Of a stretch of DNA of 64,000 bases, positions 1 to 15,422 are shown one piece after another. The stretch covers positions 1-64,000 of IMG/VR virus record IMGVR_UViG_3300031963_000037; one strand, written 5' to 3'. The position numbers and the translations under genes were made by a program. Numbering within the stretch: position 1 is the stretch's first letter; each line of letters begins with the position of its first letter. The notes below the pieces were generated by a model. It had not been told where the DNA came from, made no database searches, and saw nothing but the letters and a program-made list of their open reading frames with translations. Origin of the DNA: a virus.

Positions 1-1
1 A

Positions 2-994
2 TCTGGAAGTTCAGGTTCATCTGGAACAAGTGGAACATCTGGCTCATCTGGAACAAGTGGAACATCTGGCTCATCTGGTTCAAGTGGTTCGTCAGGAACT
101 TCTGGAACAAATGGAACATCTGGAACATCAGGTTCATCTGGAAGTTCAGGTTCATCTGGAACTAGCGGAACATCAGGTTCTTCTGGAACAAGTGGAACGT
201 CAGGTTCGAGCGGAACATCAGGTTCATCTGGAACAAGTGGAACATCAGGCTCATCAGGTTCTTCGGGAACTAGTGGAACATCAGGTTCTTCGGGAACTAG
301 CGGAACATCAGGTTCTTCGGGAACTAGTGGAACATCAGGTTCTTCGGGAACTAGCGGAACATCAGGTTCTTCGGGAACTAGTGGAACATCAGGTTCCTCG
401 GGAACTAGTGGAACATCAGGTTCTTCGGGAACTAGCGGAACATCAGGTTCTTCGGGAACTAGTGGAACATCAGGTTCCTCTGGCACAAGTGGAACATCAG
501 GTTCTTCTGGACTCGGGACAATCAACAACAACGTTAATGACTATGTCCTTACTGCGACAGGAACCGCAGGAACAATCAATGGTGAACAAAACCTTCAGTT
601 TGATGGTTCAACACTCAAAGTGACTGGTGACACTAATATAACAGGAGCATTAACAGCGGCTTCTAAATCATTCGATATTCCTCACCCTACAAAAGAAGGT
701 TGGAGATTAAGATATGGTGTGTTGGAGGGTCCTGAACATGGTGTTTATTTCAGAGGTAGAGTTCAAGGAAACGTAATAGAATTACCTCATTATTGGATAG
801 GATTAGTAAAAGAGGAATCGATTTCGGTATCATTAACACCAATTGGTGTTTCTAATACACACTTTGTTGTCAAAATTGAAGATAATAAAGTCTTCATAGA
901 CTCTCAAAGTTCTCATATCGACGCGTTCTTTATGATAAATGCTGAGAGAAAAGACGTAGAAAAAGTATTACTCGAGTATCGTCCAATAGTATAA
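2..994 (+). CDS. Ser-Gly-Thr repeat phage fibre protein, 5' truncated
   Basis: The frame is open from the first bases and continues to a TAA at 992-994, so the N-terminus lies outside the window. About the first 175 residues are almost only Gly, Ser and Thr in SGT/SGS triplets, a collagen-like low-complexity shaft. A globular tail follows, with DIPHPTKEGWRLRYG and LEGPEHGVYFRGR, motifs known from C-terminal domains of phage fibre and other virion proteins. The role is inferred to be a tail or surface fibre. The many hydroxyl residues make it a natural O-glycosylation substrate, and a glycosyltransferase operon converges on it. An overlapping ORF rich in MEHLAH-type repeats is a frame shadow of the same DNA. 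Confidence 0.8.
   Translation, partial: SGSSGSSGTSGTSGSSGTSGTSGSSGSSGSSGTSGTNGTSGTSGSSGSSGSSGTSGTSGSSGTSGTSGSSGTSGSSGTSGTSGSSGSSGTSGTSGSSGTSGTSGSSGTSGTSGSSGTSGTSGSSGTSGTSGSSGTSGTSGSSGTSGTSGSSGTSGTSGSSGTSGTSGSSGLGTINNNVNDYVLTATGTAGTINGEQNLQFDGSTLKVTGDTNITGALTAASKSFDIPHPTKEGWRLRYGVLEGPEHGVYFRGRVQGNVIELPHYWIGLVKEESISVSLTPIGVSNTHFVVKIEDNKVFIDSQSSHIDAFFMINAERKDVEKVLLEYRPIV
256..471 (+). repeat. 27-bp tandem repeat with alternating 54-bp pattern
   Basis: Eight near-identical 27-bp units each encode nine residues of the SGT shaft. The third base of one Ser codon (positions 274, 301, 328, 355, 382, 409, 436, 463) reads T,C,T,C,T,T,C,T, which suggests expansion by a 54-bp double unit. The array is inside the fibre gene and keeps the frame. 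Confidence 0.85.
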
Positions 995-1010
995 GGAATA
1001 AAAAAATACA

Positions 1011-1044
1011 AAAACGCACTCAATAAAATGGGTGCGTTTTTTTT
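1011..1044. terminator. bidirectional intrinsic terminator
   Basis: The arms 1011-1021 and 1030-1040 form an 11-bp stem with one G-T wobble and an 8-nt loop. A T run follows on the plus strand and an A-rich stretch precedes it, giving a U tract on the minus transcript. It sits between the stop of the Ser-Gly-Thr fibre gene and the stop of the convergent FkbM gene. Confidence 0.85.
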
Positions 1045-1717
1045 ATTTACTATTGTCAATATAAATCATTACTTCGTTATAATAAGGGATAAAATTATCA
1101 TTCCATATTTGCCAAGTTATATCAATTCCATCAAAAGAAATTACTTTAAAGTTAGGAAAAACCCTCAAATACACATCTCTAAAAATTCTGAATTTTTCTT
1201 TCATCCAAGGCTGGCCAAGGTGCCACTCACCAACAATTTTTCTGACATTATTTTTTATCCAAAACAAATTTTCAATTGTGAATATATCATATTCGCCTGA
1301 TTCACAATCAGTTTTAAGAAAGTCAATTTTTTTAATATTATAATCCTCAATTACCTTTGAGAATGTTGTTGAATATAGTTTATAACCACCAGTCAAATCA
1401 AAAACATCAGTGAAATTAAATTCACCTATTGAACTCGAAATACCTTTATTTATTGCGGTTACATTTCCGTGTCTTGTATTTAATAACAAAGTTTTGAATT
1501 CTTCAAAACTAGGCTCAAAAGCAAATACGTGAGAAGGATTCTTTGATAATATTGAATATGTGAAAGGACCTAAACTAGCCCCAATATCGAAAACAATATC
1601 GCCCTCTTCAACCTCAAAAAATCTTTCGTAAATCCTGTCAACAAATATTTCTTGTTCCACAGTTTCTCTAAAACCATCGTAACATTTAGGTTCCCATATA
1701 AAATTTTCTATACTCAT
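1043..1717 (-). CDS. FkbM-family SAM-dependent methyltransferase
   Basis: The predicted 224-residue protein carries a class I methyltransferase glycine motif (VFDIGASLGPFTYS) and the later FkbM-type DFLKTDCESGEYD. FkbM enzymes usually O-methylate sugars or small metabolites; methylation of glycans made by the neighbouring transferases is inferred. I chose the ATG at 1717 because it overlaps the upstream stop as ATGA, the junction also used by the previous gene pair. An in-frame ATG at 1774 would add 19 residues inside the upstream gene and is less likely. It is the last gene of the minus-strand operon. Confidence 0.8.
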   Translation of the reverse strand: MSIENFIWEPKCYDGFRETVEQEIFVDRIYERFFEVEEGDIVFDIGASLGPFTYSILSKNPSHVFAFEPSFEEFKTLLLNTRHGNVTAINKGISSSIGEFNFTDVFDLTGGYKLYSTTFSKVIEDYNIKKIDFLKTDCESGEYDIFTIENLFWIKNNVRKIVGEWHLGQPWMKEKFRIFRDVYLRVFPNFKVISFDGIDITWQIWNDNFIPYYNEVMIYIDNSK

Positions 1718-4700
1718 TTCAATAAATTTTGAATTTGATTTATTACCATACTTGGTGTTATTGAAGTGTGACACTCAAATTGTCTTGGTGTTCCTTTGTG
1801 AATTGGACACCAATCCCAATCACCTTTATCGAACTTGAAGTTGGGGTTATTCCAACATCCATTACAGACTGATTTGTTTATAATTCGGGTGCAGTTTGTG
1901 GTAAATTCGTGGTCGGGTTCAGTAAAATTACTAATCATCACAACGTGTTTACCCATTGCCCAAGACAACCAAGAAAGTCCACTTGATAAACCTATGAAAA
2001 ATTCACTATGATGTATTACATTCATGGTATTACCAATTGAACTATCTGAAATTTGTGTAACATTTCTGAACTCATTTTTTTCTTTTGATACGTTTATTAC
2101 TTTGAAACCTAAATCTACTAAGTAATCAATTAGTTCTTGCCAATATTCTTTTTTCCAAAATTTTAAACCTGAGGTGGAATTGGTTGCGATACTTATATAT
2201 TTTTCATCAAAAGGTCTTCGATAAACGTTAAAATTAATTCGTGGTTTTATTTCTTCAAATTCCAAACCTAAGATGTTTGTTGCTGCTTTTTGGAGAGGAA
2301 TTGTATTCGGGATTACTGGTTCCATATTTTCATTATAAAACCAACCAATGGAGTATTGTGCATGAATGTCTTTTACAACATTCCCTGGTTCTATGAATTC
2401 TATCTCAGGGTAAACTTCTTTGAATAACTTATTCCAAAATGTGGAAAGAATAATTTTACAATTATGTTTCTTTTGAAACTCCAAAACATAAGGCACCCAA
2501 GCAATGTTGTCACCTAAAGATTTACTATCAAAATTTATAAACACTCTTTTGTCTTTCAAATCTAATTTCGAGTCATATATTAGTGTTTCTTCTTCGTAAA
2601 CCTTAGTTCTCCAATTTGTAAAATATTGTCTGTTAAGTTTTACCCAACAGTTGGAATCTATTTTATTTTCATAATGAATTACCCCTTTATCATCAATGAA
2701 TTGAACCAAAAACTTAGAACTTGAATCCCCTTTAATTTCTAAAAAAGGTTGTCTTATAAAATATTGAGTAATTTGTATATTATTCTTTGATGATTTTTGA
2801 ATCTTTATATCCATAGTTTTTAACTTCTCATAAAACTTTTTATGAGATAAAGCAAAGTTCTGAGATTGGTCATGACTAACTTCATAGTCTCTTGAGATTC
2901 CATTGTATTTTAACTCACGAATTATGTTTGACGTTTTCTCACAATCATCATCAATTGGTGTGATGTATGGTGTAAACATATCATAATATTGTGTAAGATT
3001 TCTAGAAAGAATTTTTAAACCATAAGAAGCGGCTTCCCTAAGAACAAGGGGATTACATTCAATTGTGGAGTTAAATAAAAATATGTCTGATGCTTTCATA
3101 AACAAATCCACATCACTCCTTTCACCCCAAATTTTTACATTTGATGGTAAATTCATCATCAGAGGTTTCCAATAACTTTCGAAATTTGATGCTTGATTTC
3201 CTATGAAATGAAACTCTATATCTTCACCTTGTAGATATCTTGCGATTTCGATGCCCTCTCCTTGATTTTTTCCTTGAGTCCAAAGTCCAACGTTTATCAC
3301 ATGGGTTTTATTAAGGTCTAAACCAAGTTTTAACCTTGCGTGTTCTTTTTGTTCTTCGGTAACAAATTTTCGGTCAATAGGGTATTCAAAAAATTCATAA
3401 TAAGAATTTTCATTTTTGAATTGAACCTTCGGATGATGGGGAGAACAGAAGGCGTAAGCGTCGGGATGAAAATGTCTATTCTCAGGATTAAAATGAATAT
3501 TATGACAGGTCTCGACAATTTTCCAAGTTCTGTTGTTATCAAAAAGTGCATTTAAGACATTTATTGATACTCGATTGAAACTATCAAACCCCTCAAGTAT
3601 TTCGTCAACATGAACAATATCAATTGAATTATCTTTTATAATTTGAATTAACTTCAGAGAATTTTCATCATTATGATTTCCCAAAGTGTTTAATGTCCAA
3701 TATCTGTTATCGGGTATAATTTGTTTTATTTTTTCTTTTTGAACCACATACCAAGTTGAGTAAAGACAATACTCAACAACATATAATTCTACCTCAGGGT
3801 AATATTCTTGTAGGGTTTCGATTCTTTTCAATAAGTAAGCTGGCATACCACCAGTTGAAAGGTGAGGTGCTAAGTATAAAATTCTAAGTTTTTCCTTGTT
3901 ATATTTTTTGATTTCATCTACCATCTCTCTCATCATGTTTGGATTTTTTTCACCATGAAAAAACAGGAGATGATTTTTTTCTTCAGGAACTCTTAACCAT
4001 TCACCGATGTGGTTTCTGATACCCTTTCCTTTATATTCTACTTGGGTATACATTTTCTCAACCGTTTCTAATCTCCCATTGACATAGACATAGGGAAGAC
4101 CCTTATCTATATTGTATTTCCATAATAGAACGTTACAAATAGTCTCCTCATTATACGGAGCATAATGACTAACATTTTTCAGGACTTTTGGGTGTGAGCA
4201 CATCCAATACCATTCCTCCAAAAACTCGATGGTATTTTGACCTGAAACGAAATATCCTGTTTGTCTATAGTTTTTTCTGACCGATTGGTCAACACCAAAC
4301 AAGACACAGGTATCGTGTTCCAAAGTTGTTTCCATTCCACCTCCGAATCCTCCTCCTCCACCTCTACCATCGTATTTCAAAAAATCGTATATCCCTTCAA
4401 CAAAATATGGGTGAGATGAATTTTCATCATAATATGAAAATATAGTATCAACGTTAGGGGTTGCGATTGAATCGCTGTCAACATAACAAACAATATTTGA
4501 ATATTTTTCTAAAGCATCTTTGATAATCAGAGGTCTTTGAGATAAAATTTTATAAATTATTGGATTTTTTCTATCTATGTAAAAGTTGTCCCTTTCCTTA
4601 ATATACATGTTATTTGAAGTAGGTTCGATATCTATAGACCAATTTAAAGTCTTGGTATTTTCTACTTCAACAGTTCTGTTTGAATTTATTAAATAAACCA

Positions 4701-5403
4701 ATATTGGTAGTTTACTAAATTGTCTTATTGATTTTGCACATTCAGTTACAATATCAAAGTAATTTTCGGTTGAATATAAGACATAAGATTTGTCAAATTC
4801 AGACTCTGTTTTGATGTTCAATATAACGTCTTCCTCCAAATAAGTTACATTATAATTTGATAATTGATTTATAATTTTATCTAATTCAATTTTATTTGAT
4901 GTTTCATTGTATTCGAATTCAATTTTAGATGCGAAAAGATTATGATTCAGTCTACATTGTTCGAGATACCCTTTTAAAATTATATGTTCATGACCTTCAG
5001 TGTCAATTTTTAAATAATCAATTGAACCTATATTGTATTTTTCTATTAAAGTTTTCCAAGATATAGTTGGGACTTTATCAATTTTTACCAACTTGTTATA
5101 TGTTTCATCACCAATTTTTTTCTTTGTAAATTCATGAGGACCATTAACAGAGTTACATCCTCTAATCCAATAGGGAAGATTGTATTTTTCTAAATCTTTA
5201 GATTCTATATGATATATTTCAATAGTATCGTCTGTATCAGAAAGAGCCGCATTGACTTTTTGAACTTTGGGTTTATTAGGTAATCTATCGAGATATTCTG
5301 AAATGGGTTCGATACTGAGTCCGACAGTTTGGTCATCAGCAGATTGAATTAGAGTCATGAAGTCTGATGTTCCGACCTCTATAAAGTTGTATCTTATACT
5401 CAT
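1714..5403 (-). CDS. Four-domain glycan enzyme: FkbM methyltransferase, GT-A, GT-B and BAHT-like O-heptosyltransferase
   Basis: This 1229-residue protein appears to be four enzymes in one chain. Residues 1-200 are FkbM-like (FIEVGTSDF, then IDYLKIDTEGHEH at 128-140). About 205-500 looks like a GT-A transferase with a DxD motif (VCYVDSDS, 305-312). About 505-870 is a GT-B/GT4-like transferase (LRILYLAPHLSTGGMPAYL; EAASYG near 790). About 955-1229 resembles GT9 and the bacterial autotransporter O-heptosyltransferases, with SLGDNIAWVP and four cysteines near 1180-1215 (C-x2-C-x15-C-x11-C) like the metal site known in TibC-type enzymes. Such enzymes glycosylate Ser/Thr of repeat adhesins. A glycine-rich loop (347-356) is unusual. 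It overlaps both neighbours by ATGA. Confidence 0.75.
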   Translation of the reverse strand: MSIRYNFIEVGTSDFMTLIQSADDQTVGLSIEPISEYLDRLPNKPKVQKVNAALSDTDDTIEIYHIESKDLEKYNLPYWIRGCNSVNGPHEFTKKKIGDETYNKLVKIDKVPTISWKTLIEKYNIGSIDYLKIDTEGHEHIILKGYLEQCRLNHNLFASKIEFEYNETSNKIELDKIINQLSNYNVTYLEEDVILNIKTESEFDKSYVLYSTENYFDIVTECAKSIRQFSKLPILVYLINSNRTVEVENTKTLNWSIDIEPTSNNMYIKERDNFYIDRKNPIIYKILSQRPLIIKDALEKYSNIVCYVDSDSIATPNVDTIFSYYDENSSHPYFVEGIYDFLKYDGRGGGGGFGGGMETTLEHDTCVLFGVDQSVRKNYRQTGYFVSGQNTIEFLEEWYWMCSHPKVLKNVSHYAPYNEETICNVLLWKYNIDKGLPYVYVNGRLETVEKMYTQVEYKGKGIRNHIGEWLRVPEEKNHLLFFHGEKNPNMMREMVDEIKKYNKEKLRILYLAPHLSTGGMPAYLLKRIETLQEYYPEVELYVVEYCLYSTWYVVQKEKIKQIIPDNRYWTLNTLGNHNDENSLKLIQIIKDNSIDIVHVDEILEGFDSFNRVSINVLNALFDNNRTWKIVETCHNIHFNPENRHFHPDAYAFCSPHHPKVQFKNENSYYEFFEYPIDRKFVTEEQKEHARLKLGLDLNKTHVINVGLWTQGKNQGEGIEIARYLQGEDIEFHFIGNQASNFESYWKPLMMNLPSNVKIWGERSDVDLFMKASDIFLFNSTIECNPLVLREAASYGLKILSRNLTQYYDMFTPYITPIDDDCEKTSNIIRELKYNGISRDYEVSHDQSQNFALSHKKFYEKLKTMDIKIQKSSKNNIQITQYFIRQPFLEIKGDSSSKFLVQFIDDKGVIHYENKIDSNCWVKLNRQYFTNWRTKVYEEETLIYDSKLDLKDKRVFINFDSKSLGDNIAWVPYVLEFQKKHNCKIILSTFWNKLFKEVYPEIEFIEPGNVVKDIHAQYSIGWFYNENMEPVIPNTIPLQKAATNILGLEFEEIKPRINFNVYRRPFDEKYISIATNSTSGLKFWKKEYWQELIDYLVDLGFKVINVSKEKNEFRNVTQISDSSIGNTMNVIHHSEFFIGLSSGLSWLSWAMGKHVVMISNFTEPDHEFTTNCTRIINKSVCNGCWNNPNFKFDKGDWDWCPIHKGTPRQFECHTSITPSMVINQIQNLLK

Positions 5404-6338
5404 AATAGGGTTAATATTTTATTGAAAATTTGTAGAACGCTAGGATGACAAACAAATTCGGATTTTCCTTCTAAACATCCAACTAAAGGTGGGATTCCTC
5501 TTATTGAACCCCATTCTTTGACACCATATCTCATGTCAGATGCACATGCTATCTTACAATCCCCATCAATATAATGAAATTTATATTCTTGAGAACCGTT
5601 TCGAAAAGGGGCTCTTAACTTCCAATGAACAGAACTACCTAATTGAATGATGTTTGCATCTGTGGTTCCTGCTAAGTGTAACATACCTGAGTCCATGGTG
5701 ACCGTGCAAATACTTTTTTGCATTAACCACCAAGTTTGGGGGACATTTGCTTTATTCATTAAATTCAAACCAAGTTTGATAGGGAAATCGAAAACAGGTT
5801 TGTCTACCATGTGAAAACCTACCTCACTCGATGCCTTCCCCATCGAAACAACAGGAATACCGTAATCGTTTAACATTCGTGTTAATAACTGCCATTTCTC
5901 TGCGGGCCAAGTTCTCGAAGCCCAAGAGGTTACGGGATGTATCAAAACAAACTTTTCAGGTAAACCATCAATTGGCTCCCACTCATCAGGAACGTAATCC
6001 ATATCACATTCCTCGGGTAATAATTGGAAACCCAACCCCGCCGCATGGAATTGTCTTATGTCCATAACATTATGACGTAATCCTAAACCGTATCGGTTTT
6101 CTAAATTTGGTGCAAAACTTACGAGTAATTCGTATTGAGATTCTAAATCATCTCTATTTGTGTTCTTGGTATCAAAGATTTTATCAACATATTTGTTATG
6201 TTTGAATATTAGTGGATGGTCAGTTAATACTGATATTTTTTTTCCATAAGCAAAATATAGTTTCCTTAAAGAAGGTGTTGCACAAATAGTGTCACCTAAT
6301 CCATGACTCAGATGTAAGTCTAATAGAGGTTCTTTCAT
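5400..6338 (-). CDS. GT9-like (heptosyltransferase-family) glycosyltransferase
   Basis: The 312-residue protein begins LLDLHLSHGLGDTICATPSLRKL, where the GLGDxxxxxP loop is typical of GT9 heptosyltransferases. Later it has FVLIHPVTSWASRTWPAEKW and TVTMDSGMLHLAG, the family's nucleotide-sugar binding region. GT9 enzymes transfer ADP-heptose or related sugars; the acceptor here is unknown. It is the first glycan gene of the minus operon, joined by ATGA to the four-domain enzyme, whose last domain belongs to the same superfamily. A TATATTTC box lies 5 nt before the ATG. The C-terminal part has several cysteines, which may be structural. Confidence 0.75.
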   Translation of the reverse strand: MKEPLLDLHLSHGLGDTICATPSLRKLYFAYGKKISVLTDHPLIFKHNKYVDKIFDTKNTNRDDLESQYELLVSFAPNLENRYGLGLRHNVMDIRQFHAAGLGFQLLPEECDMDYVPDEWEPIDGLPEKFVLIHPVTSWASRTWPAEKWQLLTRMLNDYGIPVVSMGKASSEVGFHMVDKPVFDFPIKLGLNLMNKANVPQTWWLMQKSICTVTMDSGMLHLAGTTDANIIQLGSSVHWKLRAPFRNGSQEYKFHYIDGDCKIACASDMRYGVKEWGSIRGIPPLVGCLEGKSEFVCHPSVLQIFNKILTLL

Positions 6339-6390
6339 GTGATGAAATATAAGAAAGAACTTTAAGAAAATCTATTGACTTAAGATGTAA

Positions 6391-6621
6391 TTATTTTTTC
6401 TTGGATTTTAGTTTTTCCTGTTTGGAATTGTATAAGCGTAACAATTTCAGAGAGTCTTGATAGTGTTTTTCGAGTCTATCTAATTCTTCAAGTGGTGTGT
6501 TAGTCTCACTTGCAGTATTATACTGTTCTTCAGCCTCTTGAATAATCTTCTTTATCGTTTTAAGAAGTTTCATATAATCATAAATATAGGCTGAGCGTGC
6601 CTTTATATTGTTTTTAGTCAA
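6391..6621 (-). CDS. Small charged coiled-coil protein, unknown
   Basis: The 76-residue product is highly charged and predicted helical, with a Lys-rich end (KLKSKKK). The longest frame begins at a TTG (6621); an ATG at 6573 would give a 60-residue protein starting MKLLKTIKKIIQEAEEQY. I see no recognisable domain. It lies upstream of, and in the same direction as, the glycosyltransferase operon, and divergent from the large fibre gene starting at 6683. Confidence 0.5.
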   Translation of the reverse strand: MTKNNIKARSAYIYDYMKLLKTIKKIIQEAEEQYNTASETNTPLEELDRLEKHYQDSLKLLRLYNSKQEKLKSKKK

Positions 6622-6682: not shown

Positions 6683-9600
6683 ATGTCTAACATATTTGTT
6701 TATAATCAGTCACCACCCACAATTACTATAAGTCAAATTGACTTTAACGGTGTTACAGCAACTTGTGATGTGGGATGTCCTTGTACGCCAAGTTCGAGTA
6801 CTTGTGCATTCACCACTACACAAGTTGGTGAGTACACTCTTACTGTATATTGGAGTAATGGGTTGTTGAATGGTTGTATCGAGGTTACAGATAGTACTGG
6901 TAGAAAACAAAATTTTGATGCGGGTGCTGGCGGCTCGGCAACTCAATCTTTTCCCAACGTAATTTACGACGGGATTACTGAAATAGGAATATCAATATAC
7001 GACAATTTTTGTGGTCCATTAGGTGCAAACACCTTTTTGGTTTCATACTCAGTCATAAGTGGTCCGTCTGCTTGTTCTGATTTTGCATCTACAGGTGGTA
7101 CAGGTTATTACACCTCATCAGTAGAAGGACTTTGGAGTGGTAGTACTTTATATTCTGACTCAGGTCTTACAACATTTGCGCCTGACGGATATTATTCTAA
7201 CGGAATCTATTCTTGGGAAATAAGTGGAAGTAATGGGATTCTAAACAATCAAGAACTTTGTTCAGTAGGGCCTGTAGTTTCTTCAACTCCAACAGAAACT
7301 CCGACCGAAACTCCTACCCCTACACCAACTCCAACTGTAACAGAAACGCCAACAGAAACTCCAACCCCTACTCCAACGGACCCAGACCCTCCAGCTCCAG
7401 CAATCTCGCAAACACAAACACAAACACCTACCCCAACACCACAGACAGGTTGTGTTCAATATTCATTATATTTAGGTTTTTCAGGGCCTATTTCAGAACC
7501 TTATTCTTACACTGATTGTGATTCTGTACCCCAAAACGCCACAATAACCAACGGTAATACTGATGTTTTTTGTGCACTGGCTGGAACCGTTATAAGCGGT
7601 CCATCTGCAATTTTGACCGTTGTTGGTCCTTGTTTTGTAAGCCCATCACAAACACCGACACCAACTCTTACTGAGACGCCAACTACAACACCTACCCCAA
7701 CACCTACCCTAACACCACCTGGTGATTGCGAATGTTGGGAAATCACTAACAATGATATTGTAGATATTTCAATCAGATACTACGCGTGTAATGGAAATGA
7801 GGAATGTGTTCAAGTTGATGTGACATCAAGTAGATATATTTGTATATCGGGTGGAACACAAGGATTAAAACTTGTTTCATCGGGAACTACCTGTGCAGGA
7901 GGACCTGAGCCTTTATATACTTGGACATCTTTGGGAGGAACTTGTGTGGTTGATGGAGATTGTGGTGTAGTCCCTTCTCCTACGCCAACTCAAACACAAA
8001 CTCCAACCCCTTCAACTCCTTGTAATTGTACATATTTTGATGTTACAATTGCACAACCTGACTTGGATGATGCCACGGGTAATACACCTTCGTCACTAAA
8101 CAACACTATATTCGTAGACTATTACAATTGTTATAATATACTGACCACGGCAAGTTTTGCTGACGCAGGAACTTTCGACGATTCATTTTGTGCAAATTAC
8201 GTTCAGTCGACTTATTATTATAAAAACAATGTCGCTTACTTTCCAGTATCGTCTTATGCTACGGATACATTTGTAGATTGTTGTGGTACTCCAACACCTA
8301 CACCGACAACAACTGAAACTCCAACTGAAACTCCAACCGAAACGCCTACACCAACAACAACCGCAACTATAGGTTCGTCACCTACAGCAACAGAAACACC
8401 TACACAAACACCATCTGAAACCCCTACTCAAACACCTTCTGAAACCCCAACTCAGACTCCTACAATAACCGAAACTCCCACACAAACACCAACTGAGACT
8501 ATTACTCAAACGCCTTCAGAAACTCCTACACAAACACCATCCGAAACCCCAACTCAGACCCCTACATCAACTATTGGTTCATCCCCTACAGCAACTGAGA
8601 CTCCTACACAAACACCTTCAGAAACTCCAACTCAGACGCCTTCACAGACTCTATCACCAACCCCTGATGTAACACCAACCCAAACTCAAACCGAAACTCC
8701 GACACAGACACCTTCTGTAACTCCAGACCCAACTCAAACGCCATCTAATACCCCAACTAACACTCAAACACCGACACAAAACCTAATAGGGTTCCGTGAT
8801 TGTGTTTCAGGGACTTTATTCAGATTTGAGGATTTACCAGTTGCAGTTGTGGTTGACGATGTCTATCTTATCACAGGTTCTACAGAATATGAAGGATGTG
8901 CGACAGTTGTTGATTCGGGAAGTGGTCCAATATATGATGGAACATCGGTTACATTTACAAATGTAACAGGTTGCGGTTCTACACTTTGTCCAAGAGTTGC
9001 GAGTGTTGCTGCATTATTGATTGACTGTTCCACTGAAGAAATATTTTATGCCAATGTTGATGAAGATACCGCTTATCAAGGAGCGGTTTATGAATATAAC
9101 AATAGATGTTATAGATTCGAAGAGTTTTCAGGTCCTGGTGGACCTGATTTGGGTGCACCTGATTGGGGTAGTTGTAGAGCTTGTCTATTGAACACACCAA
9201 CGCCAACCCCGTATTCAACACCAACAAACACTCCGACAGTATCTTCGACACCAGCGGCTTGTGATTCGGGTGAATTTTGCTTTACTACAACCCTACCTTC
9301 TTTGTTGAATTACAATGGACTTTACGTTTCAGGTGCAACTTATAATGGTAGAATCTCCTATTCTGGTGGAAGCGTCAGCTTGGGTTACATTTATTATTTT
9401 ACATCAGTTACTGAGAGTTATTGGTGTCTGAGCACCTCTCTCGGTGGGACTTGTTTATTGAAGGGCTCGTCTCCATGTTACTCTGCGTGTCCTGATATAT
9501 CTTTCGGTTCTTTTGAACCAGGAGTTTGTCCAACTCCAACTCCAACGCCAATAAATTGTGACACCTTCGATTTCAATGCATACTTTGACTGTGATTGGGA

Positions 9601-10984
9601 ACCAGTCCCAACACCAAGTCCGTCAGTTCCTTGTGACGATGTGAATTTCATTTTCACTTCCATAGGTGTAACGCCAACTCCATCACCAACAGGATTGATA
9701 TGTCTTGGGAAAAGTGTCGACTTTGAGATTAATTATGTTCCTGATTCAACCCCAACCCCTTCAAACACACCAACGATAACACTGACAAGAACAGTTCCTG
9801 CGGATGGACAAGTTACCTTCAATATATTTGAAGAAACATTCAGTTGTGTTTCGGTTAAGGTATTGAATCAATGTGGAACTGAAAATTATTTCTACACTTC
9901 TGACCCACTTGTGTTTGAGGAAATTCCAATCCAAACTGAGATGGTATTCTCGGCGGTTATTAATGAAACAATTCTTTGCTTGAAGTATTTGAGGGATGAT
10001 TCAAACTTATCATCTAACACGAACGTAGACTCGATAATTGATATTTTTGGAAACGATTGTTCGAAATGTTCAACAGTCCCTTCACCATCACCTTCAACGA
10101 CGATAACATCAACACCTACATCAACACCAACGATGACAATTACGCCGACACAAACTTCGTCCTCGACTCCTACATTCACGCCAACTCCAACACAGACAAC
10201 AACTCCTGGTCTTACACCAACAGCAACACCAAGGCCAAGTTATTCATCAACGCCAACCCAAACTCAGACTCCATCACAAACACCGTCTTATAGTCCTACT
10301 TCAACGATGACCCCAACGCCAAGTGAAACCCCTTGTTTGGTATATGTTTATTCAAGTTGTATTCCAATTAGTCCAAATACAGTCAGAACATATATGATTC
10401 AAACACAACAATCACCAATACAGACTACAGTTGGAAGACAATTTAAAGATGCTGATGGAAATTGTTGGACCTATGAGGGTGAATTTGATTGTAATTATTT
10501 TGCACCTATCAAAATTGCAACCTCACAAAGATTCGATGGAGATTACTTTGCTTCAGCACCTGATAAAACCTATTTGAGTTGTGATACGTGTTTGAGTAGT
10601 GTTGATGAAGTTGAGGTTTATTTGAATGTAAGTTTGGAAAATAATGGAGACGGAACTTATAATATGAACTTCGTCTTATCTAGCACACCTGATGAAATTA
10701 ACCTAACCACCCTTCCGTTTGATATTGGTAATGAATTCGGACAATACATTCGTTACGGTGCACAATGTGGGTTTGTTGATGTCAGTGGAACTTGGTATCT
10801 CCTTTCAGGTAACTCACAAACAACAAAAGTTGTTGAATGTAACAAGTATGGCGGTTTCGTGTTGAATTCAGTTCAACTTACAAATCCACCATTCAATTAC
10901 AAACCTCTTGTAGGATGTTACACAATTGTTTTCCCATCAGTGACAGGAACTTTGTATAAAATTTTTATAAAACGAACAACATAA
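6683..10984 (+). CDS. Giant Thr-Pro stalk and Cys-rich bead protein, putative virion fibre or adhesin
   Basis: The 1433-residue protein alternates small Cys-rich globular segments with long T-P-T/E/Q/S-rich linkers (for example TPTETPTPTPTPTVTETP). At least seven bead segments are visible, each ending in a linker. One bead near residues 255-320 resembles the N-terminal bead of the gene at 12573, so the units are paralogous. The block TIGSSPTATETPTQTPSETP occurs twice near residues 560 and 635, showing internal duplication. No N-terminal signal peptide is clear, which fits a virion component rather than a secreted protein. Extended Thr/Pro stalks are common O-glycosylation sites. The C-terminal 220 residues have no linker and may be a receptor-binding or assembly domain. 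The exact function is unknown. Confidence 0.65.
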   Translation: MSNIFVYNQSPPTITISQIDFNGVTATCDVGCPCTPSSSTCAFTTTQVGEYTLTVYWSNGLLNGCIEVTDSTGRKQNFDAGAGGSATQSFPNVIYDGITEIGISIYDNFCGPLGANTFLVSYSVISGPSACSDFASTGGTGYYTSSVEGLWSGSTLYSDSGLTTFAPDGYYSNGIYSWEISGSNGILNNQELCSVGPVVSSTPTETPTETPTPTPTPTVTETPTETPTPTPTDPDPPAPAISQTQTQTPTPTPQTGCVQYSLYLGFSGPISEPYSYTDCDSVPQNATITNGNTDVFCALAGTVISGPSAILTVVGPCFVSPSQTPTPTLTETPTTTPTPTPTLTPPGDCECWEITNNDIVDISIRYYACNGNEECVQVDVTSSRYICISGGTQGLKLVSSGTTCAGGPEPLYTWTSLGGTCVVDGDCGVVPSPTPTQTQTPTPSTPCNCTYFDVTIAQPDLDDATGNTPSSLNNTIFVDYYNCYNILTTASFADAGTFDDSFCANYVQSTYYYKNNVAYFPVSSYATDTFVDCCGTPTPTPTTTETPTETPTETPTPTTTATIGSSPTATETPTQTPSETPTQTPSETPTQTPTITETPTQTPTETITQTPSETPTQTPSETPTQTPTSTIGSSPTATETPTQTPSETPTQTPSQTLSPTPDVTPTQTQTETPTQTPSVTPDPTQTPSNTPTNTQTPTQNLIGFRDCVSGTLFRFEDLPVAVVVDDVYLITGSTEYEGCATVVDSGSGPIYDGTSVTFTNVTGCGSTLCPRVASVAALLIDCSTEEIFYANVDEDTAYQGAVYEYNNRCYRFEEFSGPGGPDLGAPDWGSCRACLLNTPTPTPYSTPTNTPTVSSTPAACDSGEFCFTTTLPSLLNYNGLYVSGATYNGRISYSGGSVSLGYIYYFTSVTESYWCLSTSLGGTCLLKGSSPCYSACPDISFGSFEPGVCPTPTPTPINCDTFDFNAYFDCDWEPVPTPSPSVPCDDVNFIFTSIGVTPTPSPTGLICLGKSVDFEINYVPDSTPTPSNTPTITLTRTVPADGQVTFNIFEETFSCVSVKVLNQCGTENYFYTSDPLVFEEIPIQTEMVFSAVINETILCLKYLRDDSNLSSNTNVDSIIDIFGNDCSKCSTVPSPSPSTTITSTPTSTPTMTITPTQTSSSTPTFTPTPTQTTTPGLTPTATPRPSYSSTPTQTQTPSQTPSYSPTSTMTPTPSETPCLVYVYSSCIPISPNTVRTYMIQTQQSPIQTTVGRQFKDADGNCWTYEGEFDCNYFAPIKIATSQRFDGDYFASAPDKTYLSCDTCLSSVDEVEVYLNVSLENNGDGTYNMNFVLSSTPDEINLTTLPFDIGNEFGQYIRYGAQCGFVDVSGTWYLLSGNSQTTKVVECNKYGGFVLNSVQLTNPPFNYKPLVGCYTIVFPSVTGTLYKIFIKRTT
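8293..8790 (+). repeat. Thr-Pro coding repeats with internal duplication
   Basis: Tandem variants of ACACCTACTCAAACACCTTCTGAA encode TPTQTPSE units. Two copies of the SSPTATETPTQTPSETPTQT segment lie about 200 bp apart, evidence of segmental duplication inside the stalk. Confidence 0.75.
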
Positions 10985-10985
10985 G

Positions 10986-11204
10986 ATGGCAGTTCAAGTT
11001 ACAATAAATGGTATAACAGGACAATCACCATTTGACATTTATATCTGTCAACCAAACGGTAGTGGTTGCTTTTATATTAATACTATAACAACTCTTCCAT
11101 ATGATTTTGATATACCACAACCATATGATACTGGACTGGCTTACATGTTGAAAGTAATTGATTCGCAGAATTGCATAATCTCAGGAGTAACTTATGTAGC
11201 ATGA
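10986..11204 (+). CDS. Single-domain paralogue of the next gene's N-terminus
   Basis: The 72-residue protein starts one base after the preceding stop. Its pattern (VTINGITGQSPFDIYICQ, then C-x-Y-I and PYDFDIPQPYDTG) matches residues 1-70 of the following gene (VTIQSVTANTPVDIYYC, PFSFYVPSPYSES). Both contain Cys near 20 and 28 and a late Cys. It looks like a duplicated small beta domain without the Thr-Pro stalk, perhaps a tip or connector subunit of the appendage. The function is unknown. Its TGA overlaps the next ATG as ATGA. Confidence 0.65.
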   Translation: MAVQVTINGITGQSPFDIYICQPNGSGCFYINTITTLPYDFDIPQPYDTGLAYMLKVIDSQNCIISGVTYVA

Positions 11205-12541
11205 GTCAATTTGTAACTATCCAATCTGTAACTGCAAATACACCAGTTGACATATATTATTGTAACTCGGGTGGTGGCGACTGTCAATTTGTTGCGTCGG
11301 TTGCAACATTTCCATTCTCATTCTATGTCCCATCACCATATAGTGAATCAACAATTGTTATTAAAATTGAAGATACCCAAGGTTGTATTGATGAGATTCC
11401 TATAGATATAACTCCCACACCAACACCAAATGTCACTAAAACCCCAACCATGACACCAACCCCGTCGTATTCACCTACCTTGTCACCAACCCAAACGCCA
11501 TCCATGACACCAACAAATTCACCCACTACCTCGAATACAGCAACTATATCATCAACACCAACCGCAACACCTCTTGTTGTTTTTCACCCGACAGCTGATA
11601 GTTGTTCATCACCACTCAATCTAACAGGTTATTATACATACATTTCAGAGGCAAATTTAGTCCCTGTTGTAGGTGCCACAATTTACCAAACACTTCTAAA
11701 CGGGGTATTATATAACCCTTTGAATGGGGGTGGGAACACATATATCATTTCTTTCGGAGGAACATTATATCAAGTGGTAATTGATTCCCAAGGTAAAATA
11801 GTATCTTTTTCACTTTGTGTTCCATCGACACCAACACAAACTCAAACTCCATCCCAAACCCAAACTCCTACCCAATCTGAAACACCTCCTCAAACTCCTA
11901 CCCAAACAGAAACCCCTTCACAAACGCCAACGGTTACACCTTCATTTGTTGAGTTTCTTTTATCATATGGGGCAACTATATGTGGGTCAGAAATAAATTG
12001 GACATCAAAAACAAAAGAAGAAGTGAAATGTGATTTTATAGAAGCTTTCGACCCATTAGTTGAGGTAGATGGAAACGCAGGGTATTATTACAATTCTTCA
12101 ACTACTTTAGGACCTGGCAGTCAATTATATTATAATCTTTTTGGAATATTTTTTGTAAACACAACTCTTACAGGAAAATATGTATACGGACCATCTACGT
12201 ATCCAGCAAATCCTGATATATCGTCACCACCACTTTATGTTATGGAAATCTTAAATGGTGTTGTAGTGGCAATAACTAATTTCGATGATATAAGCTCTTG
12301 TGGAACTTATGTTTGTCCATGTTTGTGTTATTACTTTGAAAATCAAGATGTTGTGGGTTCAACAATACAATATACTTTATGTGATGGTTCAGTAGTTGGT
12401 GAACCACTTTCTGCAGGTTCAAAAGTCGAAAGGTGCATCCGAGCTGGGTCGGGTGATTTTTCAGGTGGGGTTACATCAATTCAACCTTGTAGTAGTGTAA
12501 CTATTTGCACTGATAGCGTAGATTGTGGTGGATGTTCATAA
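11201..12541 (+). CDS. Thr-Pro stalk appendage protein
   Basis: A 446-residue protein if started at the ATG at 11201, which overlaps the previous stop by ATGA; a longer in-frame start at 11171 lies inside the previous gene and is disfavoured. Residues 1-70 are the small beta domain shared with the preceding gene. Two Thr-Pro linkers (about 77-125 and 208-245) separate this domain, a middle domain and a C-terminal Cys-rich domain (CGTYVCPCLCYYF and DSVDCGGCS). It is probably a virion surface protein made with the two neighbouring stalk proteins. No enzymatic motif is visible. Confidence 0.65.
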   Translation: MSQFVTIQSVTANTPVDIYYCNSGGGDCQFVASVATFPFSFYVPSPYSESTIVIKIEDTQGCIDEIPIDITPTPTPNVTKTPTMTPTPSYSPTLSPTQTPSMTPTNSPTTSNTATISSTPTATPLVVFHPTADSCSSPLNLTGYYTYISEANLVPVVGATIYQTLLNGVLYNPLNGGGNTYIISFGGTLYQVVIDSQGKIVSFSLCVPSTPTQTQTPSQTQTPTQSETPPQTPTQTETPSQTPTVTPSFVEFLLSYGATICGSEINWTSKTKEEVKCDFIEAFDPLVEVDGNAGYYYNSSTTLGPGSQLYYNLFGIFFVNTTLTGKYVYGPSTYPANPDISSPPLYVMEILNGVVVAITNFDDISSCGTYVCPCLCYYFENQDVVGSTIQYTLCDGSVVGEPLSAGSKVERCIRAGSGDFSGGVTSIQPCSSVTICTDSVDCGGCS

Positions 12542-12572
12542 ATAAAAAAATGGAAAAGATAATTATAAATTA

Positions 12573-15422
12573 ATGGCTTGTATTAACTATCAAATAACAA
12601 ATGGGTCCGCAATTTTACCTGCAACTCCTATAGGGTTTGACTGTGAATTGAATCCTATTCCTACAATTCCACCGAGCGGCACAATAACTGTTTGTTCCTA
12701 TACTGTGCCAGGTCAAGCTCCAGGTGAGTTCATAATACTCACAGTTCTCGGTGCTTGTCCCACGCCCCCTATTCCTTCTTCGAGCCAAACCCCTACACAA
12801 ACACCGACTCAAACCCCCCCGCCAACCCAATCTCAAACCCCACCACCAACACCAACACAAACTATTACGCAAACTAAAACTCCAACCCAAACACCGACCC
12901 CTACCAAAACTCCCACTAATACCCCTACACCAACGCAGACCCCATCATCCACCCCAATAGTGTGTGGAAGTGCTTATACAACTGGAATATTTTGGTATAC
13001 AGATTGTTGTGGTAATTTCCAAAAAGGTGAAAGTTTTGAAGTCCTTGTTTCGTTAGATTATACTCAAGTTTATAGTGGTGTAGTTTTATTGAACGAGCCT
13101 GCAACCACAGCGTGCCTGACCCCAACACCAACACAAACAGCCTCACCAACAACTACTCTCACAACTACACCGACCCCTACTCAAACGCCAAGTCTGACAC
13201 CAAATGTAACACCAAGTCAAACACCAACACCTAACCCAACACCAGTTTATCGTCCGAAAAACAATTGTGAACCGTTTACCCTTTTCGATTTGGGTGTGAA
13301 TTGTAATCTTCTCAAAATGCCTTCAAACTCAGAATCATATGATGGGATTCTCACTTTGAACATCACAGGAGGAACAAGTCCGTATTCAATTTATTGGGCA
13401 AATGGTCAAAGAACAAGAACTTTAACTAACATAGGACCTGGTTATTATCCTGTTACCGTTGTTGATTATTACGGTGACTATACTGCAAACACAGTTTGCT
13501 CCATACTTTTACCGACAGCAAGTCCAACTCCATCCCCAACTGTAACGCCATCCACAACACCTCCACCAGTTTACGCCAACATTTGTTTCTTGGCATACAA
13601 CAATTCTAACGTTGTAGGACCAACAACGTTCAGTCAAAATGGAACGTCTAATGGTAAACCAAGATGGACAAGTAGTAATTCACAGAACATTGTGTGGAAA
13701 GGAACAAGATGGGAACTTGTTGGTTCAGATTTGATAACACCAATAAACCCTGTGGGGGGAGGTATTTTTGCGTCCTCAACCACTTCATTACCACCTTTAG
13801 GTGGTTGGAGTTTACTTGGTGGAACACAAACTTATACTATAAATGTAACTTTAGGTTCTTGTCCTACAATAATACCACTTCAAGTGACAACAACAAAACA
13901 AGATGCGTCTTGCAACAACCAAACGAACTGTGATGGTTCAATAACGGTTAGTGCGAGATTTGGATTAGCACCATATCAATATTCGATTAATAACGGGGTA
14001 TCATATCAAACCTCAAATATTTTTACAAATCTTTGCCCGAACACATACAATATTAGAGTTATAGATGCCGCGAATAATATAGTTAATCAATCGGTTCAAA
14101 TAAGTTCAGTGGGAAGTCCACAAACATATCAAATTAATATTATAACACAACCACAATTAAACACTGAGGTATCTTCAAATAATATTTCAACGAAAACAAC
14201 ATATTTTTATGTTACTTCGGTTCCGCCTATACCTAATGGAGTTGTGGTTAATTTCAATTTGACAACATCATCTATCAAGACATTCAATGGACCAGGAACA
14301 GGAACTTGTGTAGACAACTTTACTATTCTACAAAATGGTTCAACAAAGACACCTTTCTCCACAGACATAGATACTGTTATTGGAAGTAGACCAAACTGTA
14401 ATCCCGAGACACAAAGAATTGATACTGAGACTGACCAATATTCGTTGGAACTCTCAAATTTTAGCACTGTTTCAGGTTCTACTACTTCGATATTAACAAT
14501 AACCGATGGTCAAGTTGGAGCTCAGTCCAACTGCACAACTAATCTACAACAGACAATTTCTTTTCAAGTTTCTGATGTAGTCATCAAAGGATGCACTTGT
14601 TGTTCAGCGGTAGGTGATACAGAAAAAACACAGGTGAATAACAACTCAATCACCTATCAAGGTCAGGTTGATACACCTGAATGTGTAACATGTCAAGGTG
14701 TTATTCAAAGTGGTAACATTTATCTCAACATGAATCAATTAGTTGGAGGATTAATTTGTTCAGGACCAAATAAGGTGGGTTGTTTCCAAAATTTCAGATA
14801 TAGCCCTACTGGTGGTGTTCTTACAATTGATTCAGGACTATCCACATATCCGTGTGGTATATCCCCAAATAATAATGTTCAATACATGCAGGCAAACTTC
14901 CAAACACCAACAAGCGACAATTATTATGTTGAGGTTAAAGCAATGCTGAATGACGTTGAAGTTGGCTCGGGTATTTTCAACGGATTCTGTTCTGCGGGAA
15001 TAAATGAAAGTGTTAGTGTTGTTATGTATAACCCGATTAATCTTGTTGCAGGTGATGTGTTCAAGATGGTTTATAATAGTGATGGTGGAAGTATTGTTTG
15101 TAATCCTGTGACAAGTTTGATTGTGACACCAACTACTAATTTGGGTGAACCCGCAGTGGACATAGTAATTACTACGCAAAACATTGTGACAATTGATACT
15201 AGTTTTTCGATTCAGATTGAGACGAGTAACTATGGGGTATTTTATAAAACCGTAACAATAACAAGTGGAAATTCTTCGGGTAATATGATAGACAACGTTT
15301 CAGGAAGTCCAGGACCTGACCCAACAATAGTTGCTTATTGTATTGACAGCGTAGATAATTCTCTTATCTCTTGTTCATCAAAACAATGTTCAAACGCGAG
15401 CTGTAAATGTGCACAGGATTAA
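12573..15422 (+). CDS. Large stalk protein with SprB-like repeats
   Basis: The 949-residue protein starts with a Cys-rich bead (1-70), then Thr-Pro linkers and another bead (VCGSAYTTGIFWYTDCCG). At about 257-305 it has LNITGGTSPYSIYWANG and LTNIGPGYYPVTVVDYYGD, a clear match in form to the SprB repeat known from Bacteroidota adhesins. A second, more divergent copy starts near 443 (CDGSITVSARFGLAPYQYS, NLCPNTYNIRVID). The C-terminal half has many cysteines (CTCCS, CSNASCKCAQD end). It is likely a virion fibre or decoration protein; the SprB-like units point to gene exchange with a gliding Bacteroidota host. It is preceded by an AT-rich TATAAATTA box. Confidence 0.7.
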   Translation: MACINYQITNGSAILPATPIGFDCELNPIPTIPPSGTITVCSYTVPGQAPGEFIILTVLGACPTPPIPSSSQTPTQTPTQTPPPTQSQTPPPTPTQTITQTKTPTQTPTPTKTPTNTPTPTQTPSSTPIVCGSAYTTGIFWYTDCCGNFQKGESFEVLVSLDYTQVYSGVVLLNEPATTACLTPTPTQTASPTTTLTTTPTPTQTPSLTPNVTPSQTPTPNPTPVYRPKNNCEPFTLFDLGVNCNLLKMPSNSESYDGILTLNITGGTSPYSIYWANGQRTRTLTNIGPGYYPVTVVDYYGDYTANTVCSILLPTASPTPSPTVTPSTTPPPVYANICFLAYNNSNVVGPTTFSQNGTSNGKPRWTSSNSQNIVWKGTRWELVGSDLITPINPVGGGIFASSTTSLPPLGGWSLLGGTQTYTINVTLGSCPTIIPLQVTTTKQDASCNNQTNCDGSITVSARFGLAPYQYSINNGVSYQTSNIFTNLCPNTYNIRVIDAANNIVNQSVQISSVGSPQTYQINIITQPQLNTEVSSNNISTKTTYFYVTSVPPIPNGVVVNFNLTTSSIKTFNGPGTGTCVDNFTILQNGSTKTPFSTDIDTVIGSRPNCNPETQRIDTETDQYSLELSNFSTVSGSTTSILTITDGQVGAQSNCTTNLQQTISFQVSDVVIKGCTCCSAVGDTEKTQVNNNSITYQGQVDTPECVTCQGVIQSGNIYLNMNQLVGGLICSGPNKVGCFQNFRYSPTGGVLTIDSGLSTYPCGISPNNNVQYMQANFQTPTSDNYYVEVKAMLNDVEVGSGIFNGFCSAGINESVSVVMYNPINLVAGDVFKMVYNSDGGSIVCNPVTSLIVTPTTNLGEPAVDIVITTQNIVTIDTSFSIQIETSNYGVFYKTVTITSGNSSGNMIDNVSGSPGPDPTIVAYCIDSVDNSLISCSSKQCSNASCKCAQD

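What the first reader, a model, noticed from the sequence alone, without database searches (positions are those of the whole stretch)
1..15422. A candidate phage fibre O-glycosylation system
Three glycan genes (GT9-like, four-domain enzyme, FkbM) form an ATGA-coupled operon placed between a Ser/Thr/Gly repeat fibre and three Thr-Pro-rich stalk proteins. The last domain of the big enzyme resembles the O-heptosyltransferases that modify Ser/Thr of repetitive autotransporter adhesins. Seen: gene order, repeats and motifs. Inferred: the enzymes glycosylate the phage's own fibres, with later O-methylation by FkbM. Such coating could hide the virion or tune adhesion in a Bacteroidota habitat.
Basis: partly seen in the sequence, partly recalled or inferred. 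Interest (0 to 1): 0.85.

Follow-up and report, generated by a model that had tools for sequence, protein, structure and literature searches.

The report
Phage enzymes that sugar-coat phage fibres
A large aquatic bacteriophage carries a multi-domain sugar-transferring enzyme, related to the one that sugar-coats bacterial adhesins, next to its own giant glycine-serine-threonine fibre; the same pairing recurs across many phages and in some bacterial chromosomes, which suggests that the phage decorates its own fibres with sugar.

Summary
The last domain of the 1229-aa enzyme is a TibC/AAH-type protein O-glycosyltransferase (TIGR04414, 293.6 bits, cut-off 200) that keeps the catalytic Asp, Lys and Trp and four iron-finger Cys.

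The new evidence is its pairing with (Gly-Thr/Ser-Ser)n proteins. In viral contigs, 21 of 26 enzyme clusters with enough flank have such a fibre in the locus; random, shorter loci have any long Gly-X-X array in 3 of 120. Among printed records of 60 kb or more, the enzyme is in 13 of 18 picked by TSG repeats, 7 of 18 picked by another collagen-like repeat (p 0.09), and 0 of 16 shorter random ones. In four of five bacterial genomes, chosen because the enzyme had a TSG neighbour, 80 of 82 genome-wide TSG matches lie beside it. These enzymes form a clade apart from autotransporter enzymes (TSG arrays in 0 of 59 loci).

The GT9 gene is linked less strongly to the Thr-Pro proteins. I infer O-glycosylation of the phage's own fibre, extension by fused transferases, and methylation by FkbM. 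The donor is unproven: the adenine-contact Arg is mostly lost. No chemistry has been shown.

The parts
2..994 (+). 3' end of the giant (Gly-Thr/Ser-Ser)n fibre gene; repeat followed by a C-terminal domain shared with phage tail fibre-like proteins
   Evidence: the full 2059-aa ORF is in L004
1010..1041 (.). terminator-like hairpin between the convergent fibre gene and glycan operon (13 pairs, T tail)
   Evidence: pattern match only; 5 such matches in the region, 2.5 expected
1043..1717 (-). stand-alone FkbM-type methyltransferase, ATGA-coupled to the polyenzyme
   Evidence: (TIGR01444, 50.4 bits, cut-off 37.7)
1714..5403 (-). 1229-aa polyenzyme: FkbM / putative GT-A / GT4 / TibC-type O-glycosyltransferase
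4840..5403 (-). polyenzyme domain 1 (aa 1-188): FkbM methyltransferase
   Evidence: Methyltransf_21 4.3e-13
3895..4818 (-). polyenzyme domain 2 (aa 196-503): putative GT-A glycosyltransferase; the fold was not matched independently
   Evidence: the PDB list covers mainly the GT4 half; homologues loci
2824..3891 (-). polyenzyme domain 3 (aa 505-860): GT4 retaining glycosyltransferase
   Evidence: HepE/BshA/PimA, Z about 27-29 over 315-330 residues
1717..2799 (-). polyenzyme domain 4 (aa 869-1229): TibC/AAH-type (BAHT) protein O-glycosyltransferase with iron-finger Cys4
5400..6338 (-). stand-alone GT9 glycosyltransferase, ATGA-coupled to the polyenzyme; heptosyltransferase-like fold, own conserved Cys set (C261, C265, C288, C297)
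6683..10984 (+). Thr-Pro-rich protein 1, divergent from the GT9 gene; candidate acceptor of GT9
11171..12541 (+). Thr-Pro-rich protein 2
   Evidence: (phrog_15511)
12573..15422 (+). Thr-Pro-rich protein 3, with SprB repeats
   Evidence: (SprB 33 bits, cut-off 28)

Best explanation
This is a phage-encoded virion-protein O-glycosylation operon. In the infected cell's cytoplasm the TibC-type domain attaches the first sugar, most likely to Ser of the Gly-Thr/Ser-Ser repeat of the phage's own fibre. The GT4 and putative GT-A domains fused to it extend the glycan, and the two FkbM domains O-methylate it. The separate GT9 enzyme probably starts or adds sugar on the Thr-Pro-rich stalk proteins. Shown: family membership of the domains (the GT-A one excepted), conserved catalytic and iron-finger residues, gene coupling, and a genomic pairing of this enzyme clade with TSG-repeat proteins in phages and bacteria. 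Inferred: the acceptor residue, the sugar, the order of steps, methylation of the glycan, the GT9/Thr-Pro pairing, and any biological role (stiffening a proline-poor Gly-X-X fibre, protease resistance, or tuning adhesion).
For: Family: TIGR04414 293.6 bits, cut-off 200; TibC structures 4rb4/4rap at 9.9e-53 and 1.1e-51. In 55 of 55 non-redundant phage domains Asp-110, Lys-230, Trp-305 and the four iron Cys of TibC are kept, Thr-226 in 51 with Ser in 4; in the wider clade the Cys are kept in 74 of 75. Mutants at Asp-110, Lys-230, Trp-305 and the Cys lose or largely lose activity (PMC4358343, passages).
Forward pairing: Ser/Thr-rich Gly-X-X ORF in 22 of 28 clusters at 70% identity, 21 of 26 with at least 8 kb of flank, several within 1 kb. 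Any Gly-X-X run of 15 or more: 42 of 61 enzyme loci against 3 of 120 random loci (the random loci are shorter, median 8.0 against 15.5 kb). Loci with only the GT-A domain: 0 of 13, of 4-19 kb.
Reverse pairing: enzyme in 13 of 18 TSG-picked records of 60 kb or more against 0 of 16 random ones (p 1e-5).
Bacteria: in four genomes 22 of 22, 33 of 33, 12 of 12 and 13 of 15 genome-wide TSG matches lie at the enzyme locus (places matched to by coordinates). In Methylobacter the TSG protein's frame ends 20 bp before the enzyme's open frame.
Clade: 75 phage and TSG-linked rows split from 60 rows that include TibC. Strict TSG arrays: 34 of 43 phage rows not picked by a repeat pattern (41 of 54 with the picked ones) and 13 of 21 bacterial loci, against 0 of 59.
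An isolated phage, Microcystis phage Mel-JY01, has the pair (317.4 bits in TIGR04414).
Against: No chemistry exists: the pairing is genomic. Arg-286, which contacts adenine in TibC and whose mutation abolished or cut activity, is kept in 16 of 75 clade members and is Thr here, so ADP-heptose may not be the donor. The 321-kb record has no match to the HldE-domain-II or GmhA models; a host supply would be needed. Specificity for TSG over other collagen-like repeats in phages is only suggestive: 13 of 18 against 7 of 18 records (p 0.09). My first, hand-picked sets had given 12 of 18 against 3 of 16 (p 0.007) because I left out two GAQ records already known to carry the enzyme and kept one such TSG record. 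Among the 18 GAQ records the enzyme is in 4 of 6 with a strict TSG match and 3 of 12 without. In short stretches it was 7 of 120 TSG against 5 of 120 GAQ. 5 of 18 TSG records of 60 kb or more had no enzyme (records may be fragments). Neighbours of TSG fibres whose stretch lacks the enzyme show few other glycosyltransferases (3 matches among 150, with 23 of 48 families not shown). The within-record rotation test is moderate (combined p 1.9e-4 over 14 partly related records).
Confidence: 0.8

Rival explanations
1. The enzymes remodel the host's lipopolysaccharide or capsule (for example to exclude other phages) and lie beside tail genes only because such regions collect host-interaction genes.
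For: This is how glycosyltransferases in the host-recognition region of pelagimyophages were read in print (PMC7029224, passages). GT4 and GT9 families include LPS enzymes. Among phage records the enzyme is also found with GAQ-type collagen-like fibres (7 of 18), as expected if it merely goes with tail-fibre regions.
Against: The enzyme is in the protein O-heptosyltransferase family above cut-off, and none of the LPS heptosyltransferase models listed for it reaches its cut-off. The same clade lies beside TSG-repeat secreted proteins in bacterial chromosomes, away from any tail region seen in those loci.
Confidence: 0.12
2. The enzymes glycosylate a host surface protein carrying TSG-like or Thr-Pro repeats, masking a receptor, rather than the phage's own fibre.
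For: Some bacteria do carry secreted TSG-repeat proteins with their own enzyme.
Against: The adjacent TSG array with over a thousand Ser/Thr is the phage's own, and the enzyme is next to or overlapping such a gene in several loci (0-49 bp).
Confidence: 0.05
3. The domain has kept its fold but uses another acceptor or donor, for example it extends glycans already present, or uses a non-ADP sugar, and GT9 or GT4 starts the glycan.
For: Arg-286 lost in 59 of 75 clade members; fused GT4 and GT-A domains; no heptose-pathway matches in the 321-kb record.
Against: The TibC-type domain also occurs without fused partners beside TSG proteins in phages and bacteria (L071, L551, L554), so it is the part common to these pairs.
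Confidence: 0.3

Closest known systems
TibC / AAH autotransporter heptosyltransferases (BAHT family, TIGR04414)
   Same: Family model above cut-off, catalytic Asp/Lys/Trp, iron-finger Cys4, gene near a repetitive Ser-rich protein
   Different: Separate clade; the neighbour is a Gly-Thr/Ser-Ser array, not an autotransporter (such arrays in 0 of 59 classical loci); Arg-286 mostly lost; fused to GT4, putative GT-A and FkbM domains; phage-borne
Chlorovirus A64R (glycosyltransferase plus O-methyltransferase multi-domain protein) and Mimivirus L230 (collagen glucosylation)
   Same: Virus-encoded glycosylation of virion or collagen-like proteins, with fused domains (PMC4691112, passages)
   Different: L230 acts on hydroxylysine and A64R is not described there as TibC-like; viruses of eukaryotes
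Phage virion glycosylation in mycobacteriophages and jumbo phage XacN1
   Same: Phage glycosyltransferases proposed or inferred to glycosylate virion proteins (PMC11256854, abstract start in the listing; PMC5852040, passages)
   Different: No TibC-type enzyme or TSG fibre mentioned in what I saw; the wider mycobacteriophage work is recalled, not read
LPS heptosyltransferases WaaC / RfaF (GT9)
   Same: Fold of the stand-alone GT9 gene
   Different: The LPS models listed stay far below cut-off; four conserved Cys in the 14 phage GT9 rows aligned; gene beside Thr-Pro proteins in part of its lineages

Membership tests
BAHT / TIGR04414 | Curated family score above cut-off | tested here: met
   293.6 bits, cut-off 200
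BAHT / TIGR04414 | Catalytic base Asp-110 and donor-site Thr-226, Lys-230, Trp-305 | tested here: met
   All four in the window enzyme; 55, 51, 55 and 55 of 55 non-redundant phage domains
BAHT / TIGR04414 | Adenine-contact Arg-286, conserved in the published family | tested here: not met
   Thr in the window; Arg in 16 of 75 clade members against 59 of 59 classical rows. I therefore file it as a sister clade of the autotransporter enzymes, not as a classical BAHT
BAHT / TIGR04414 | Iron finger with four Cys | tested here: met
   All four Cys, 55 of 55; 74 of 75 in the wider clade
BAHT / TIGR04414 | Neighbouring autotransporter acceptor | tested here: not met
   The neighbour is a TSG fibre
BAHT / TIGR04414 | Dodecamer and N-terminal beta-barrel | not tested
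BAHT / TIGR04414 | Heptose transfer to Ser from ADP-heptose | not testable with these tools
   needs biochemistry
LPS heptosyltransferase (TIGR02193/02195), for the GT9 gene | Curated score above cut-off | tested here: not met
   32 bits against 185.3; 23.7 against 134.6
GT4 family, polyenzyme aa 505-860 | GT4 fold and Pfam score | tested here: met
   Pfam Glycos_transf_1 34.2 bits, cut-off 26.4; HepE/BshA/PimA Z about 27-29
GT-A fold, polyenzyme aa 196-503 | GT-A fold match to a solved structure | tested here: inconclusive
   The structure list is filled by the GT4 half
FkbM methyltransferase | Pfam/NCBIfam score above cut-off | tested here: met
   Both copies above the Pfam cut-off; in NCBIfam the stand-alone copy is above (50.4, cut-off 37.7), the fused one just below (35.9)
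Phage virion glycosylation system | Glycan found on virion protein | not testable with these tools
   needs virion mass spectrometry

The most novel reading that the evidence does not exclude
TSG arrays are a widespread class of proline-poor Gly-X-Y helix, shared by many aquatic phages and some gammaproteobacteria, that is completed by O-glycosylation of Ser in the Y position. The dedicated clade of TibC-type enzymes would then do for these fibres what proline hydroxylation does for animal collagen, with a phage-specific, methylated glycan built by a variable set of fused transferases. In the longest array of the own phage Y is Ser in 92% of triplets and Thr in 1%, while X is Thr or Ser. A similar bias (Y Ser 70%, Thr 10%) is seen in arrays with no enzyme in the held stretch, so it does not by itself prove the point.
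Probability: 0.3. Interest if true: 0.9.

Novelty: new variant of a known kind. Interest (0 to 1): 0.8.

Why it matters
Phages often carry glycosyltransferases next to tail genes, and the two papers I saw passages of read them as host-LPS, cell-wall or DNA modifiers; another calls glycosylation of phage structural proteins rarely identified (PMC5852040). This result names a specific enzyme clade, its likely acceptor repeat and an isolated phage with the pair. The question 'do phages sugar-coat their own fibres, and with what' becomes testable with one virion digest. It also extends the autotransporter heptosyltransferase family to a new candidate acceptor class, found on bacterial chromosomes as enzyme/secreted-protein pairs.

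Tried and rejected
1) Specificity for TSG over other collagen-like repeats. Short stretches: enzyme in 7 of 120 TSG, 5 of 120 GAQ, 0 of 120 random (above 100 bits). Whole records, first pass: 12 of 18 TSG, 3 of 16 GAQ, 0 of 16 random. On checking, those sets were uneven: I had left out GAQ records L196 and L251, which are the contigs of enzyme loci L035 and L033, and kept TSG record L130, the contig of enzyme locus L633. Taking every printed row (80 of 120 per set) with a contig of 60 kb or more, stretch-positive ones included, gives 13 of 18 TSG and 7 of 18 GAQ, p 0.09. Of the 7 GAQ records with the enzyme, four have strict TSG matches (112, 22, 150, 195) and three none. One of the three gives the same enzyme score as one of the four and its enzyme is 1.7 kb from its contig end; another is a contig of the same group as L033 and L034; the third has two matches to a shorter pattern.
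2) Thr-Pro-rich proteins as acceptors of the TibC-type enzyme: rejected as the general rule, as 0 of 66 loci outside the own phage have one. They go with the GT9 gene: 14 of 24 enzyme loci with GT9 have a Thr-Pro ORF against 1 of 68 without (Fisher 2e-9, rows redundant). By lineages grouped by hand, 4 of 8 against 0 of 27 clusters without GT9 (p 0.0013; an earlier 0 of 28 had counted the own phage). Reverse: GT9 in 1 of 120 Thr-Pro pattern stretches, of which 65 pass the Thr-Pro ORF rule.
3) TSG fibres without the enzyme in their stretch flanked by other glycosyltransferases: little support; two GT2 matches and one GT25 among 150 neighbours from 73 loci, 25 of 48 families shown. The GAQ and random neighbour lists were not scanned, so there is no control.
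4) Phage-made ADP-heptose: sub-threshold HldE-domain matches in 4 of 21 records, GmhA 0 of 21, neither in the 321-kb record.
5) The strict run rule misses interrupted or mixed arrays (L561; L298); a lenient rule also flagged autotransporter loci, so the strict one was used for counts. 7 of the 54 phage rows there were picked by their TSG repeat and 4 by a GAQ repeat; without them 34 of 43.
6) GT-A half: no independent fold match; closest viral model over GT-A+GT4 is a glycosyltransferase of Virus NIOZ-UU157, 48%.
7) Paper searches that showed no report of this pairing; listings (titles and abstract starts) only, open-licence PMC only.


Full report
Check of the observation. The window is the start of a 109,379-base IMG/VR virus record. 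Eight other contigs, of up to 321 kb, carry the same enzyme at 100% identity. One of those contigs (L004) shows the fibre ORF to be 2059 aa with 1120 Ser/Thr, mainly GTS (281) and GSS (225) triplets. Ser is written with both codon families, so the amino-acid pattern, not DNA slippage alone, is kept. The C-terminal domain of the fibre matches 49 phage records; the best are annotated 'putative tail fiber-like protein' in Flavobacterium phage immuto (50% identity), and 32 of 49 are Synechococcus phages.

What the enzymes are. The 1229-aa protein is FkbM / putative GT-A / GT4 / TibC-type. The last domain passes the curated model for autotransporter O-heptosyltransferases (293.6 bits, cut-off 200) and aligns with TibC structures at 9.9e-53 and 1.1e-51. 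I mapped residues named in the TibC paper (PMC4358343, passages read) on 55 phage domains non-redundant at 90%. Asp-110, Lys-230, Trp-305 and the four iron Cys are kept in 55 of 55; Thr-226 in 51, Ser in the other 4; Arg-286 in 9; Pro-300 is Ser in 35 and Gly in 20. The GT4 half of a good model (pLDDT 89) matches HepE, BshA and PimA at Z about 27-29 over 315-330 residues. The GT-A half was not matched independently. The stand-alone GT9 model (pLDDT 82) is nearest to RfaF, another GT9 and TibC.

Forward pairing. One search gave 74 loci; 61 carry the TibC-type domain above 100 bits, 41 of those the strict TSG pattern and 42 a Gly-X-X run of 15 or more. Clustered at 70% identity (a few clusters are second copies), 22 of 28 clusters have a Ser/Thr-rich Gly-X-X ORF in the locus, 21 of 26 with at least 8 kb of flank. 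Distances fall to 0-49 bp in L013, L019, L036, L037 and L071. Controls: random stretches have a TSG pattern in 1 of 120, a Gly-X-X run of 15 or more in 3 of 120, and the enzyme in 0 of 120. They are shorter than the enzyme loci, median 8.0 against 15.5 kb. Loci with the homologous GT-A domain but no TibC-type domain have such a fibre in 0 of 13; they are 4-19 kb long. In whole records, 18 of 22 have the strict TSG pattern. Three of the other four have two matches each to a shorter pattern and one has none. In 14 of those 22 records, read almost end to end, the enzyme is 3 bp to 10 kb from a Ser/Thr-rich Gly-X-X ORF (circular distance). A rotation test gives a combined p of 1.9e-4, but some records are related. 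In several contigs the assembly breaks inside the repeat, which hides adjacency.

Reverse pairing. Stretches of about 9 kb picked by a TSG pattern hold the enzyme in 7 of 120, by a GAQ collagen pattern in 5 of 120, by a random pattern in 0 of 120. For whole records my first, hand-picked sets gave 12 of 18, 3 of 16 and 0 of 16. On checking, the sets were uneven (see Tried and rejected). Every printed row with a contig of 60 kb or more gives 13 of 18 TSG records and 7 of 18 GAQ records (p 0.09); TSG against the 16 random records, which are shorter, gives p 1e-5 (members). Within the 18 GAQ records the enzyme is in 4 of 6 with a strict TSG match and 3 of 12 without. So in phages the enzyme goes with Gly-X-X fibres, with a lean towards TSG that this sample does not prove.

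Bacteria. The nearest bacterial relatives (best 80 of 324 kept) give an independent and cleaner test. In Methylobacter, other Methylococcaceae and several gammaproteobacterial genomes the stand-alone enzyme lies beside a short protein with a signal-peptide or lipobox-like start (judged by eye) and TSG repeats. Distances between stop-to-stop frames are 20 bp in L551 and L559, 4 bp in L561, 93 bp in L563 and 116 bp in L554. I chose five such genomes (3.7-5.0 Mb) because of that neighbour and searched each whole for the strict pattern. Four gave 22, 33, 12 and 15 matches, of which 22, 33, 12 and 13 lie at the enzyme locus. In Methylobacter luteus the two matches lie elsewhere, and its enzyme-linked repeat does not meet the strict pattern (places matched to by coordinates). 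So in these genomes TSG repeats are nearly confined to the enzyme's neighbourhood.

Clade. A tree of 135 rows splits 75 phage and TSG-linked rows from 60 rows that include TibC and enzymes beside large ORFs (quick method, midpoint root). Strict TSG arrays occur in 41 of 54 phage rows (34 of 43 without rows picked by a repeat pattern) and 13 of 21 bacterial loci of the first clade, and 0 of 59 of the second. Arg-286 is present in 16 of 75 against 59 of 59. The working name is therefore a TSG-linked sister clade of the autotransporter enzymes. It works like them, but two published features (Arg-286 and an autotransporter partner) were tested and not met.

Assembly line. The TibC-type domain is the constant part. 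Around it vary GT-A+GT4 (L010-L013), an unassigned N-terminal region of about 400 aa (L033, L045), GT4 before and FkbM after (L639, L650, L651), FkbM+GT-A+GT4 (window, L104, L654), GT9 fused in front (L638), or nothing (L071, L551). This fits one initiating step and a phage-specific glycan. It is inference that FkbM methylates that glycan.

GT9 and the Thr-Pro proteins. GT9 relatives sit 26-40 bp upstream of a Thr-Pro ORF on the same strand in L642-L645, L651-L653 and L657, and about 260-300 bp from one in L632, L633, L635-L637 and L654. Several GT9 lineages lack one, and two have other Ser/Thr-rich ORFs in the locus. I regard a GT9/Thr-Pro pair as likely but unproven (about 0.45).

An isolated test case. 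Microcystis phage Mel-JY01 has a 1226-aa protein annotated 'methyltransferase FkbM' that scores 317.4 bits in TIGR04414, near a TSG fibre of 156 triplets. All 12 strict TSG matches of its 190-kb record lie within the first 9.6 kb, around that gene. The 735-kb record LR756501 also has the pair; LR756504 has the enzyme but no TSG match.

Literature. Glycosyltransferases in phage genomes have been read as LPS modifiers (PMC7029224, passages) or as DNA or cell-wall modifiers (PMC10202952, passages). XacN1 authors call glycosylation of phage structural proteins rarely identified and report at least two glycoproteins (PMC5852040, passages). Chlorovirus and Mimivirus systems are the nearest working analogues (PMC4691112, passages). 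I saw no report of this pairing in the listings. Parallels to glycosylated bacterial and worm collagens are recalled only.

Verdict.

Noticed in passing
window 45604-52992: Three further collagen-like fibre genes of GAQ/GPQ type with few Ser/Thr lie about 40 kb from the operon; the same phage carries both fibre types.
   Followed up: partly
L002-L009, G001, G016, G018: Metagenomic contigs of these phages tend to end inside the TSG repeat, and the fibre ORF length differs between assemblies; repeat collapse is likely, so fibre lengths are uncertain.
   Followed up: partly
L544, L545, L547, L550, L551, L554, L559, L561, L562, L563: Bacterial contigs carry pairs of a TibC-type enzyme and a small secreted or lipoprotein-like TSG-repeat protein of unknown function.
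   Followed up: partly
neighbours of TSG fibres in L076-L195: 2OG-Fe(II) oxygenase matches (families matching 3 and 1 of 150 neighbours) beside TSG fibres whose held stretch has no enzyme; a hydroxylation alternative could be checked.
   Followed up: no
L536-L539: Four of 21 records with the enzyme encode a nucleotidyltransferase similar to HldE domain II, below the curated cut-off.
   Followed up: no
window 5400-6338: The GT9 family has four Cys invariant in 14 aligned rows (C261, C265, C288, C297), reminiscent of the TibC iron finger although it does not match TIGR04414.
   Followed up: no
window 12573-15422: The third Thr-Pro protein contains SprB repeats, known from Flavobacterium gliding adhesins (recalled).
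   Followed up: no
window 53006-53857 (-): Weak metallopeptidase-like matches (SprT-like, Peptidase_M91), below cut-off, in a minus-strand block of three genes after the collagen-like fibres.
   Followed up: no
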